64,000 nucleotides of DNA. Source: Saccharofermentans sp. GTDB taxonomy: Bacteria; Bacillota; Clostridia; Saccharofermentanales; Saccharofermentanaceae. Positions within the stretch are counted from its first letter, which is position 1, and each line of letters opens with the position of its first letter. A model generated the notes under the pieces. That model was not told the origin of the DNA. It did no database searches and saw only the letters and a list, made by a program, of their open reading frames with translations. The stretch covers positions 1 to 64,000 of the forward strand of contig JAKSRC010000005.1 of assembly GCA_024403855.1 (NCBI GenBank), in the 5' to 3' direction. Positions 5,792 through 60,249 of this stretch are shown here, in pieces. The translations under genes and the position numbers were made by a program.

Positions 5792-5822
5792 TTCTGTTAC
5801 CTCCATAATTTATTACCAGAAG

Positions 5823-5849
5823 AAGGTTTTGCAAGTAATCGAAAACCTT
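5823..5849. repeat. Inverted repeat in the D-LDH 5' region
   Basis: Perfect 8-bp arms aaggtttt (5823-5830) and aaaacctt (5842-5849) lie 31-58 bp upstream of the D-LDH start. This position suits an operator or a leader hairpin. No regulator can be assigned. Confidence 0.35.
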
Positions 5850-5981
5850 ACTTCAAAGTTTGCTCTTCTAGCCGCATTCTAACATTTCACAAATACCATA
5901 TATATAAGCTGCGGTAGGGGAATATATACAAATATAAAGCTCGAAAACGACCTGCGTATAAACACTACGCGATGCATGCAC

Positions 5982-6022
5982 CGTTAAGGAATCGTTAAGG
6001 TTAAGAGATTTTTTCGTTAAGG
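5982..6022 (+). promoter_or_regulatory. Three CGTTAAGG direct repeats in helical phase
   Basis: The octamer cgttaagg occurs at 5982, 5993 and 6015, that is 11 and 22 bp apart. Direct hexamer or octamer repeats with 11-bp spacing are the usual target of OmpR/PhoB-type response regulators, and two such regulators are encoded just downstream (7026, 8997). Likely an activator site for the DUF975 gene at 6110; the regulator assignment is inference. Confidence 0.45.
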
Positions 6023-6109
6023 TTCGATATATAGAATGATAACTGTCAGGGATAGAGCCGGCCGGTTCATGTTGATAAGTATAATTTATATGGGAAAGAG
6101 GTCGCAAAT

Positions 6110-14184: not shown

Positions 14185-14211
14185 TTTACTGGCAGGATAG
14201 ATTAAGTCGAT

Positions 14212-14263
14212 AAGGGGCTGTGAAATAACCTAACTAACAAGTGGGTTTCACAGCTCCTTTTTT
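14212..14263 (+). terminator. Terminator after the ABC permease
   Basis: A 14-bp stem (aaggggctgtgaaa, 14212-14225, with tttcacagctcctt, 14246-14259) has a 20-base loop and a TTTT tail. Its left arm with the two bases before it (ataaggggctgtgaaa) is repeated exactly, in inverse orientation, at 14550-14565. Confidence 0.75.
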
Positions 14264-14520
14264 GTTGTGTCTGCTTTTGCGCTACCACTCCCGATACGGA
14301 ATATTCACGAAAAACGCTGATTTCGTGAATAAATCGTACACTTTGGGTTGATTTTCACGCTACGTTCACGAAAATCGCAATTTTCGTGAATCCTACGTGA
14401 ATGTGGAAAAGCAAGTGCAAAGAGAATTGCGATTGACAATTTCTTATCCAGATCGCTCGAAAATAAAGATTATGGATAATTGCACCTCTTCACTCTCACC
14501 ACCAGCTCCCCACGCGCACA
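14264..14520. other. Palindrome-rich non-coding block between two convergent terminators
   Basis: No credible gene. It holds nested inverted repeats: attcacgaaa/tttcgtgaat (14303-14330), ttcacgaaaat/attttcgtgaa (14365-14390), aatcgcaatt/aattgcgatt (from about 14374 to 14435), ttatcca/tggataa and an outer gtgcaa/ttgcac pair (about 14416-14484). Several are mutually exclusive, as in regulatory RNA. It could be a structured RNA linked to the adjacent reverse transcriptase, a small palindromic mobile element or a protein-binding array. Confidence 0.45.
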
Positions 14521-14564
14521 AAAAAAGAGGCCATGAAAAACATATAGTTTTTCACAGCCCCTTA
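14521..14564 (-). terminator. Terminator of the reverse transcriptase gene
   Basis: Read on the minus strand, a 17-bp stem (aaggggctgtgaaaaac with gtttttcatggcctctt, a few G-U pairs, loop tatat) is followed by a run of T. The stem starts within the stop codon of the reverse transcriptase gene. Confidence 0.8.
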
Positions 14565-15761
14565 TTCTTGATTGTCTTTGTAGTATTCGTTGACGAGACT
14601 TCTGTAACCAAGTGATTTCAGATCTTCATATCTGACATTGAAACGTGATTTTGTGTGCGTTCCGCTAATGAGGAAACGCAAAAGCTCCTGTGCGTATAAA
14701 TCAATCTCGTGAAGACTTTTCGAAGTGGTGATTACAGGGAAGAACCAAAGGCTCCAGGTAAGGTCCGAATCTTCATTAACTTCAAGCAGCTTGTGATTGA
14801 AGATCCTGATAAATGCAGCCGCCGCTTTAGTGCTATCGATGCCTTCTCTGCGACTCCATCTGTCGAGTGCTCTGGCTTTTCTTCGCATCTTCTGCTTGAG
14901 CTTAGTAACCGACGCCGGTGCGATGTCTATGTTACCGTCTTTTACCTGCACGCCAAGGAACGTGAAGCCGTCTTCCGGACTTGCAAATACTTCCTTGGAT
15001 GGGTTGACTGTAAGACCTCTGTTTTTCAGGAATTCAAGGATTGTTTCCTGGTATTCTCTTATTTCACTTTCGCTCTTTGCGAAAACAATTATGTCGTCAG
15101 AATATCTCGCATAAAGAACGCGTTTATCCTTGAAATACTTGTCCAGATCTTTCAGGTAAAGATTCGCATAGAATGAGGCAATCGGTGTGCCCGCCATAAT
15201 GCCTTTTTGCTCTTCTATAATCTTGCCTTCGGATACGACTCTTTCTTCGCGAAGAAGTGTCTTCATGAACGATAGAAGTCTGTCATCGTCAGTGATGTTC
15301 TTTTCGAGTTCCAGGCATATTTTATCGACAGGAATCGAGTTGAAATAATCGCTGACATCGATCTTATATGAATACATTTTCCTGATGTCTTTTGTTCGGC
15401 ATATCGCCATGATCGCATCTTTCGCACATACGCCCGGACGAAAAGAATATAGGTTACTTGTGTAGATGTGATTATATTTTCGAAGAGTCAGATAGGTGAG
15501 AAGCTTAAGTAACATGTTGAAGTTATATGGATACTTGTAAACAGTGCGCTTCTTCTGACTGCTCATCTTGCTGATTATGGATTTGGAGGGCAGAGGGAGA
15601 TCTGTCAGGGTTTTGACGGATTGCTCATATTCAAGATAAGCCTCACTGTCGATAAACTCACGAAGTTCTTTCTTGAAGCGTTTTGAGCATTTGAGACCGG
15701 ATTTGTATTCGTAGAATCTCTCCCAGTAACTTTTTTCGAAAAGATTATCGATTAAAGACAT
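14562..15761 (-). CDS. Stand-alone reverse transcriptase, group II-like or unknown group
   Basis: 399 aa. RT motifs in order: fingers motif FRPGVCAKDAI (108-117), palm motif A KIDVSDYF with Asp135, motif KGIMAGTPIASFYAN (186-200), catalytic YSDD at 220-223 (ARYSDDIIVF), and FTFLGVQV (267-274). A thumb-like tail follows and ends YEDLKSLGYRSLVNEYYK. There is no maturase X or HNH domain, no retron VTG motif and no DGR-type SQ motif. The start follows aaggagcagga. A minus-strand -10 (15790-15795) leaves a leader of only about 20 bases, so a retron-style RNA upstream is excluded. It is flanked by GH43 and an ABC permease gene. It may be a defence or domesticated RT; function unknown. Confidence 0.85.
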   Translation of the reverse strand: MSLIDNLFEKSYWERFYEYKSGLKCSKRFKKELREFIDSEAYLEYEQSVKTLTDLPLPSKSIISKMSSQKKRTVYKYPYNFNMLLKLLTYLTLRKYNHIYTSNLYSFRPGVCAKDAIMAICRTKDIRKMYSYKIDVSDYFNSIPVDKICLELEKNITDDDRLLSFMKTLLREERVVSEGKIIEEQKGIMAGTPIASFYANLYLKDLDKYFKDKRVLYARYSDDIIVFAKSESEIREYQETILEFLKNRGLTVNPSKEVFASPEDGFTFLGVQVKDGNIDIAPASVTKLKQKMRRKARALDRWSRREGIDSTKAAAAFIRIFNHKLLEVNEDSDLTWSLWFFPVITTSKSLHEIDLYAQELLRFLISGTHTKSRFNVRYEDLKSLGYRSLVNEYYKDNQE

Positions 15762-15852
15762 TCCTGCTCCTTAAGGCGTTTTGCCAAACATTATAACGCT
15801 TCTTTATATGGGTACCGACGAAACATAGCAAAATCGGTCGCTAATAACAAGA

Positions 15853-15923: not shown

Positions 15924-16904
15924 ATGAAAAAGAATGAACGCAAAGACCTCGTAACTAACATTTACACAGCAGACCCTTCTGCACATGTATTTGACGGTAA
16001 GATTTATATTTATCCTTCACACGATGAAGGTCTTGATGTTCCTGAAGATGACGACGGCGAACAGTATATCATGAAGGATTACCACATCCTTTCTATGGAT
16101 TCATTGGACAGCGATTGTGTTGATAACGGTGTTGCTATTCACGAGGATGACATCCCGTGGGTTTCAAGACAGCTTTGGGCACCTGATGCTATTTGCACAA
16201 ATGGTAAGTATTATCTCGTATTCCCTGCAAAGGATAAGGACGATATTTTCAGAATCGGTGTAGCTGAATCCGATTCACCTGTTGGTCCTTTCAAGCCTCA
16301 GGAGAACTACATTCAGGGAAGCTACAGTATCGACCCTGCAGTCCTCTTGGATGATGACGGCAGAATCTACTGCTACAATGGTGGTCTCTGGGGCGGTCAG
16401 CTCGAAATGTGGCAGTCCGGTACATTCAATCCTGATGAGCATCGTCCTGAAGGCGATGAGAACGCATTGGGACCCTTGTTCTCAGAGTTCACACCTGATA
16501 TGACAGCTTTCAAGGCTGCTCCTAAGATGATCACAATCCTCGATGAGAATGGTGACCCTATCAAGGCTGGTGACGAGGATCGTCGTTATTTCGAAGACCC
16601 TTGGATGCACAAGTTCAATGGCAAGTACTATTTCTCATATTCAACAGGCACAACACACTATCTCTGCTATGCTGAAGGTACTTCACCTGAAGGTCCTTTC
16701 ACATACAAGGGAAGAATCATGGAGCCTGTTATCGGTTGGACAACACATCACTCCATCGTAGAGATCGACGGCGAGTGGTATCTCTTCTATCACGATGCTA
16801 AGCGTGCAGGCGGCTGCTCACACAAGAGAAGCGTTAAGTTCACACACCTCAACATCGCTGAAGACGGTACAATCGAGAAGATTTATCCTTACGATCACGA
16901 GTAA
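15924..16904 (+). CDS. Glycoside hydrolase family 43 (xylosidase/arabinofuranosidase type)
   Basis: 326 aa, a single five-bladed propeller domain without signal peptide, so cytoplasmic. The three expected acidic residues are visible: Asp17 (YTADPSAHVF, base), Asp137 (SIDPAVLLDDDG, pKa modulator) and Glu224 (YFEDPWMHK, acid). The late blade motifs HHSIVEIDGEWYLFYHD and KRAGG are typical of GH43 enzymes that release xylose or arabinose from (arabino)xylan oligosaccharides. The exact specificity cannot be read. The start follows gggaggcgc. It probably acts with the GH3 enzyme at 35302 on imported oligosaccharides. Confidence 0.9.
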   Translation: MKKNERKDLVTNIYTADPSAHVFDGKIYIYPSHDEGLDVPEDDDGEQYIMKDYHILSMDSLDSDCVDNGVAIHEDDIPWVSRQLWAPDAICTNGKYYLVFPAKDKDDIFRIGVAESDSPVGPFKPQENYIQGSYSIDPAVLLDDDGRIYCYNGGLWGGQLEMWQSGTFNPDEHRPEGDENALGPLFSEFTPDMTAFKAAPKMITILDENGDPIKAGDEDRRYFEDPWMHKFNGKYYFSYSTGTTHYLCYAEGTSPEGPFTYKGRIMEPVIGWTTHHSIVEIDGEWYLFYHDAKRAGGCSHKRSVKFTHLNIAEDGTIEKIYPYDHE

Positions 16905-16955: not shown

Positions 16956-17130
16956 TGTTACAACATTAAATGCAAAAGCAGAAAGAGAAATCATTAAATC
17001 CAAGAATTTCTTGGATGTACAAGATCGTACACGAATCGGCTGCCTGCGAAGCCTGATAAGAAACGTGCCGGACCCGCCACAGGCGCTAAGCGTTCTCTTT
17101 CTGCCAGGGGTTATTATACTCTCAGTCTTA
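16956..17130. other. Structured intergenic region, possible small RNA or operator
   Basis: No gene. It contains a 19-bp palindrome with 9-bp arms (atccaagaa/ttcttggat, 16998-17016), then tgtac/gtaca, then atcggct/agcctgat, then an imperfect long hairpin aagaaacg...cgttctctt enclosed by cctg/cagg (about 17055-17106). It is noticeably more GC-rich than other intergenic stretches. I do not recognise a known RNA family. A -10 box (TATAAT, 17164-17169) for the next gene follows. Confidence 0.35.
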
Positions 17131-60088: not shown

Positions 60089-60099
60089 TTTCGCGAAAA

Positions 60100-60184
60100 G
60101 TGTATCGGGGAGCTGTAAAAAGCTGAGAGGGATTATATATCCGACCCGCTGAACCTGACGGATAATGCCGGCGTAGGGACCATA
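60100..60184 (+). ncRNA. TPP riboswitch (THI element)
   Basis: The conserved core is clear: cggggagc, then gctgagagggatt, then gacccgctgaacctgacgg, and ataatgccggcgtaggga. These correspond to the pyrimidine-sensing (CTGAGA) and pyrophosphate-sensing (gcgtaggga) helices of thiamine-pyrophosphate riboswitches. It sits in the 5' leader of the ThiT-aquaporin gene. Confidence 0.95.
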
Positions 60185-60195
60185 TATAAATATCT

Positions 60196-60249
60196 ACCTC
60201 TTGTCATGGCGCTGTTTTTAGGGTTTCCCGAGCATCATTTGACGGAGGT
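60196..60249 (+). promoter_or_regulatory. Ribosome-binding-site sequestering expression platform
   Basis: acctcttgtca (60196-60206) can pair with ttgacggaggt (60239-60249), which contains the ribosome-binding site ggaggt; an inner gggtttccc hairpin extends it. No T run follows, so control is probably at translation: TPP bound means site hidden. Confidence 0.6.

What the first reader, a model, noticed from the sequence alone, without database searches (positions are those of the whole stretch)
14562..15761. Orphan reverse transcriptase of uncertain class with YSDD active site
All core RT motifs are present, but the hallmarks of group II intron maturases, retrons and DGRs are missing, and no intron domain V is visible nearby. 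The leader is only about 20 bases, so no RNA is encoded between promoter and gene. Stand-alone RTs of unknown groups include anti-phage systems (DRT). This one has no recognisable partner protein gene.
Basis: partly seen in the sequence, partly recalled or inferred. Interest (0 to 1): 0.65.

Follow-up and report, generated by a model that had tools for sequence, protein, structure and literature searches.

The report
UG26 reverse transcriptase with distant RNA
The "orphan" enzyme is a known but untested type of anti-phage reverse transcriptase (group UG26); its small folded RNA, normally encoded right in front of it, is in this bacterium a separate gene 1.2 kb away, which makes it a natural test of whether such an RNA works as a detached template.

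Summary
The ORF is real: 399 aa, intact palm (D135, YSDD). It is not of uncertain class: it matches PADLOC's RT_UG26 (DRT) at 577.7 bits over its full length; the next UG model scores 111. It is not a complete orphan: Rfam's RT-5 RNA lies on the same strand at 16974-17105, 1,212 nt upstream, behind a GH43 gene. In nearly every other UG26 locus RT-5 sits 7-100 nt before the RT, and a ~170-aa protein (PADLOC RTasCOG2852) is encoded before the RNA. In the genus all 18 RT genomes also have the RNA; one has RNA alone, 16 have neither. Covariation supports 46 of 48 pairs, including a closing stem outside the Rfam match and a pseudoknot. Only in one Saccharofermentans clade are RNA and RT split, by 1.2-9.4 kb, both intact. 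The partner sits at a third site in seven of eleven of these genomes and was not found in this one. By analogy with Class 2 DRTs (DRT2, 3a, 9, 10) I infer that the RT copies an 8-nt RNA loop (UUAAUGAU, then UU) into DNA repeats, perhaps protein-primed. A covariation test of the telomerase-like A-B-A' pattern was only suggestive. Defence is inferred, not shown.

The parts
14562..15761 (-). UG26 reverse transcriptase, 399 aa, palm intact (D135, YSDD 220-223), C-terminal motif LGYRSLVNEYY
15790..15795 (-). TATAAT, likely -10 box of the RT gene's own promoter; start site about 20-25 nt before the ATG
   Evidence: sequence; inference
16974..17105 (-). RT-5 noncoding RNA, full extent including closing stem P1 (Rfam RF03026 covers 16986-17088)
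17093..17105 (-). P1 closing stem, 5' strand (GGCAGAAAGAGAA)
   Evidence: 13 of 13 pairs with double changes
16977..16989 (-). P1 closing stem, 3' strand (UUCUCUUUCUGCU); its first UU(C) is the proposed alignment segment A'
   Evidence: role inferred
17078..17083 (-). pseudoknot 5' strand CCUGUG
   Evidence: 5 of 6 pairs with double changes
17043..17048 (-). pseudoknot 3' strand CGCAGG in the loop of the central hairpin
16998..17004 (-). 3' strand of hairpin P4 (CUUGGAU), proposed 5' template boundary
   Evidence: 8 of 8 pairs with double changes; role inferred by analogy with DRT10 SL5
16990..16997 (-). 8-nt template-loop candidate UUAAUGAU (UUAA near-invariant, last four variable across families)
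   Evidence: templating inferred
17113..17118 (-). TATAAT of the RNA's own promoter, 7 nt before P1; the clade's conserved upstream ATTTGATTTG element is not present here
15924..16904 (+). GH43 gene lying between RNA and RT; present in split loci, absent from loci L082-L084 where RNA and RT abut
5807..6109 (.). gap where the RTasCOG2852 partner gene lies in several split-clade relatives; none here

Best explanation
The RT is the protein core of a UG26 defence-associated RT system whose template is the RT-5 RNA. SHOWN here: UG26 identity; physical linkage, co-occurrence and conserved fold of RT-5 with UG26; a conserved partner in most loci; displacement of the RNA gene, with its own promoter-like sequence, in this clade; no detectable partner in this genome. 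INFERRED: the separately transcribed RNA binds the RT in trans. The RT copies the single-stranded loop UUAAUGAU between hairpin P4 and closing stem P1. It stops at P4 and realigns the new DNA end on the following UU(C), giving tandem repeats of about 8 nt, (ATCATTAA)n. It may prime on a residue of its C-terminal tail, as DRT9 and DRT10 do. Where present, the RTasCOG2852 protein is probably effector or regulator, and the product is used against phage. Step by step: identity about 0.97, RT-5 is its RNA partner about 0.9, RNA is the template about 0.75, short tandem repeats about 0.5, defence role in the family about 0.7.
For: UG26 577.7 bits full length versus 111 for the next UG model; all 89 sampled homologues hit UG26. 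RT-5 on the same strand upstream of the RT in 73 of 80 genome-contig loci, 62 of them within 100 nt, and in most divergent loci. Genus co-occurrence 18 both, 1 RNA only, 0 RT only, 16 neither (hypergeometric 4e-9). RNA and RT divergence correlate, Mantel r 0.85 (partly shared phylogeny). Fold: 96.7% of cells paired versus 83.6% shuffled, 46 of 48 pairs with double changes. Loop length 8 in 88 of 93 RNAs, UUAA near-invariant; the split clade keeps UUAAUGAU (one UUAAUAAU) while the adjacent stem varies. Nearest UG models include UG17/DRT10, UG28/DRT9 and DRT3a, all ncRNA-templated repeat synthesisers (PMC12632851, PMC12483538, PMC13174585). Partner matches PADLOC RTasCOG2852 in 49 of 49.
Against: Covariation between the two halves of the proposed A-B-A' repeat is not significant on de-replicated RNAs (p=0.14; p=0.067 for repeats of 5 nt or more at 75% identity; only the 95%-identity set is clearly significant). 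The C-terminal tyrosines are conserved as aromatics but not strictly as Tyr. No phage-challenge data for UG26 found. The locus sits among metabolic genes, with no UG26 on plasmids, phages or viral contigs. Without its partner the system here may be non-functional in defence.
Confidence: 0.6

Rival explanations
1. The window holds the decaying remains of a UG26 system: partner gone, RNA promoter partly lost, RNA and RT separated and no longer working together.
For: No partner in the genome; the clade's -35-like ATTTGATTTG element is absent upstream of the window RNA.
Against: RT frame intact with low dN/dS; RNA fold and UUAAUGAU loop intact; RT and RNA kept together in all RT-bearing genomes of the genus, including near-complete ones with no detectable partner (G032, G142, G115).
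Confidence: 0.17
2. It is a retron: RT-5 is the msr-msd RNA and the RT makes a branched multicopy DNA from it.
For: Folded RNA with paired ends directly upstream of the RT in most loci.
Against: Retron St85 model 56.5 bits against a cut-off of 235; no retron VTG or NAxxH motif in the protein (sequence; motifs from general knowledge); best HMM is UG26 by over 460 bits.
Confidence: 0.04
3. It is a group II intron-like (G2L) RT acting in DNA repair by snap-back or microhomology-primed synthesis, with RT-5 as regulator rather than template.
For: Best Foldseek matches are GsI-IIC and G2L4 RTs (TM 0.70-0.76), above DRT9 (0.61).
Against: Group II maturase model 112.7 bits against a cut-off of 300; no intron RNA; dedicated structured RNA and UG-type partner. 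Fold similarity to group II RTs is common across this RT superfamily.
Confidence: 0.06
4. The clade has domesticated the RT-RNA pair for a housekeeping role at a fixed chromosomal site; defence is lost.
For: Same site in all examined split-clade genomes; no mobile-element linkage found; partner undetected in several near-complete genomes.
Against: Patchy presence, 18 of 35 genus genomes, as expected for defence; seven of eleven split-clade genomes keep the partner.
Confidence: 0.13

Closest known systems
UG26 (PADLOC RT_UG26 with RTasCOG2852)
   Same: RT here and, in relatives, the partner match these models over full length.
   Different: In this clade the three parts are dispersed; in this genome the partner was not found. 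I found no paper in the held library that studies UG26 beyond counting it.
Rfam RF03026 RT-5 RNA
   Same: The RNA is a member above threshold.
   Different: P1 and the pseudoknot extend or add to the Rfam match; here the RNA is 1.2 kb from its RT with its own promoter-like box.
DRT10 (UG17), PMC12632851
   Same: Best-scoring other UG profile; compact RT, structured ncRNA with a loop just 3' of a hairpin, third protein component in most relatives; possible A-B-A' template.
   Different: Partner is RTasCOG2852-like, not SLATT; order is partner-RNA-RT; priming residue and product unknown.
DRT9 (UG28), PMC12483538
   Same: Class 2 UG RT with ncRNA; Foldseek TM 0.61; tyrosines in the C-terminal tail.
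   Different: No conserved poly-U template; the UG26 loop is UUAANNNN.
Telomerase
   Same: RT and template RNA encoded apart, short loop template next to a boundary hairpin, RNA pseudoknot (analogy only).
   Different: No homology test made here; product and primer unknown.

Membership tests
UG26 DRT | full-length match to the RT_UG26 profile, far above other UG groups | tested here: met
   577.7 vs 111.2 bits, residues 1-398 of 399
UG26 DRT | RTasCOG2852 partner encoded with the RT (usual in the group, not known to be required) | tested here: not met
   present in nearly all other UG26 loci, no match in this genome; whether PADLOC's system rule demands it was not checked
UG26 DRT | protects against phage | not testable with these tools
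   needs experiment
Rfam RT-5 RNA | score above gathering threshold | tested here: met
   86.8 vs 45.7 bits
DRT10 | UG17 RT | tested here: not met
   UG17 111 bits vs UG26 578
DRT10 | SLATT partner | tested here: not met
   the partner of relatives matches RTasCOG2852 consistently, nothing else
DRT10 | A-B-A' template repeat in the ncRNA loop | tested here: inconclusive
   window has GAUUU-AAU-GAUUU; permutation p 0.067-0.14 on de-replicated sets
DRT10 | C-terminal Ser/Tyr protein primer | not testable with these tools
   NEYY tail conserved as aromatics; model coordinates not available for a distance check
Group II intron maturase | TIGR04416 cut-off and intron RNA nearby | tested here: not met
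   112.7 vs 300 bits; no intron RNA
Retron | retron RT model and VTG/NAxxH motifs | tested here: not met
   56.5 vs 235 bits; motifs absent in P0001

The most novel reading that the evidence does not exclude
In Saccharofermentans a UG26 system has been taken apart into a fixed chromosomal RT gene and a separately transcribed template RNA that act in trans without the partner protein, making short DNA repeats such as (ATCATTAA)n for a role other than classical operon-encoded defence: a bacterial parallel to the separate TERT and TR genes of telomerase.
Probability: 0.13. Interest if true: 0.85.

Novelty: new variant of a known kind. Interest (0 to 1): 0.52.

Why it matters
UG26 is a widespread Clostridia RT group for which I found no mechanistic study. 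Linking it to the RT-5 RNA and to RTasCOG2852 gives a complete candidate system with a concrete, testable DNA product. The natural split, with the RNA promoter-driven and kilobases away, is evolutionary evidence that the RNA works in trans rather than as a leader of the RT mRNA.

Tried and rejected
A-B-A' covariation by half-swapping: suggestive only. Automatic loop extraction from single-sequence folds was too noisy and was dropped. UG26 in viral contigs, phages, plasmids: none; only distant group II or retron RTs. Pfam and PHROGs give nothing consistent for the partner; its model has an alpha-beta-beta-beta-alpha-beta-alpha C-terminal domain, resembling PD-(D/E)XK topology, but Foldseek found no significant match. 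Weak antisense model hits come from the RNA's near-palindromic shape, and the L085 hit of 18.5 bits is probably chance. The RT tree needs two changes between split and adjacent (L082-L084 nest inside the split clade), so I cannot say whether there were two insertions or one insertion and one loss. The UG/Abi and 224-RNA papers are not in the library; no held paper mentions RF03026, or COG2852 with RTs.

Full report
1. Observation. The minus-strand ORF 14562-15761 encodes a 399-aa RT with RVT_1 well above threshold. In an alignment of 89 homologues D135, D222 and D223 are invariant. The AlphaFold model is confident, mean pLDDT 94.4. Foldseek ranks group II RT GsI-IIC (TM up to 0.76), G2L4 (about 0.7) and DRT9 (about 0.6) among the best. 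No group II intron RNA lies in the 64 kb.

2. Class. PADLOC RT_UG26 matches at 577.7 bits over residues 1-398. The next UG models are UG17 (DRT10) 111, UG4 101, UG27 99 and Drt9 88. All 89 sampled homologues hit UG26. NCBIfam maturase and retron models fail their cut-offs.

3. The RNA. Rfam RT-5 lies at 16986-17088 (-) with 86.8 bits; my model, which adds the closing stem, covers 16974-17105. It is 1,212 nt upstream of the RT on the same strand, with a GH43 gene on the other strand between them. In other UG26 loci RT-5 is immediately upstream: 62 of 80 genome-contig loci have it within 100 nt, and 73 have it within the held flank (two weak hits discounted). Divergent loci from other families show the same. 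Within the genus, RT and RNA co-occur: 18 genomes with both, one with RNA only, none with RT only, 16 with neither.

4. RNA fold. On 89 distinct RNAs the seven-helix structure is 96.7% paired, against 83.6% in shuffles and about 39-46% when slid; 46 of 48 pairs show changes on both sides. This includes P1 (13 of 13) and a pseudoknot (5 of 6). The alignment was fitted to the nested part of the structure, which favours it, but the pseudoknot was not part of that model. A loop of exactly 8 nt in 88 of 93 RNAs lies between hairpin P4 and P1: UUAA near-invariant, then four variable bases, then UUC.

5. Partner. A ~170-aa protein is encoded just upstream of the RNA in most loci outside the split clade: 44 of 61 by clustering, more by HMM. 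It is PADLOC RTasCOG2852 in 49 of 49. In the split clade it sits at a third conserved site some 8-14 kb beyond the RT in G005, G007, G009, G020 and G029, and on other contigs in G018 and G025. It was not found in this genome, nor in G008, G027, G032, G115 or G142 (the slot lies at a contig end in G008 and G027).

6. The split. The split loci examined share the order FliB-like/cupin, RNA, GH43 with 0 to several other genes, RT, ABC transporter. In L082-L084 RNA and RT abut at the same site without GH43. The RT tree needs two state changes. In this clade the RNA carries its own TATAAT box 7 nt before P1 and usually an ATTTGATTTG element upstream; the window keeps the first and lacks the second. 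RNAs in other families are usually preceded by the end of the partner gene instead.

7. Mechanism. Class 2 UG RTs studied so far copy short loops of cis-encoded RNAs into repeats (PMC13174585; PMC12632851 for DRT10; PMC12483538 for DRT9). UG26 has the same anatomy. The window loop gives GAUUU-AAU-GAUUU, predicting (ATCATTAA)n. Half-swapping tests of A-A' covariation were not significant after de-replication, so the repeat mechanism stays an inference. The C-terminal motif LGYRSLVNEYY is conserved as aromatics, a candidate priming region by analogy.

8. Distribution. 571 relatives were confirmed in genome contigs (a lower bound; distant RTs may be among them); the 80 best, which are listed, are Clostridia, mostly rumen or gut MAGs. 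29 of 250 genomes (one per genus) sampled from one family carry it, and none outside the class in the phylum sample. None was found on phages, plasmids or viral contigs.

9. Verdict. A known kind of RT (UG26) in an unusual, dispersed form. The new points here, as far as the held library shows, are the assembly UG26 + RT-5 + RTasCOG2852 with P1 and pseudoknot, and the natural separation of RNA and RT genes. Defence and repeat synthesis remain to be shown.

Noticed in passing
window 14210-14565: Perfect 16-nt inverted pair (14210-14225 / 14550-14565) and two 27-nt near-palindromes TTCACGAAAA..TTTTCGTGAA (14304-14330, 14365-14391) in the gap between the ABC permease and RT genes.
   Followed up: partly
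window 60096-60196 (+): TPP riboswitch (Rfam RF00059, 61.5 bits).
   Followed up: no
L058 / G002:C3:18326-18429: One genus genome has an intact RT-5 RNA at the usual FliB site but no UG26 RT detected (93% complete assembly); possible RT loss with RNA kept.
   Followed up: partly
L205:243-806 (G004:C120): One genome has the RTasCOG2852 partner at its conserved site but neither RT nor RNA detected (81% complete assembly).
   Followed up: no
L170, L174, L182, L185 and similar: A divergent RT-5 subgroup has UUCAAAG instead of UUUAA in the template loop; several of its loci carry a divergent partner lacking the GWWN motif.
   Followed up: partly
L018 / L066: A 40%-identical UG26 RT in another family (G056) lies next to a tRNA cluster and has no recognisable RT-5 RNA.
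   Followed up: no
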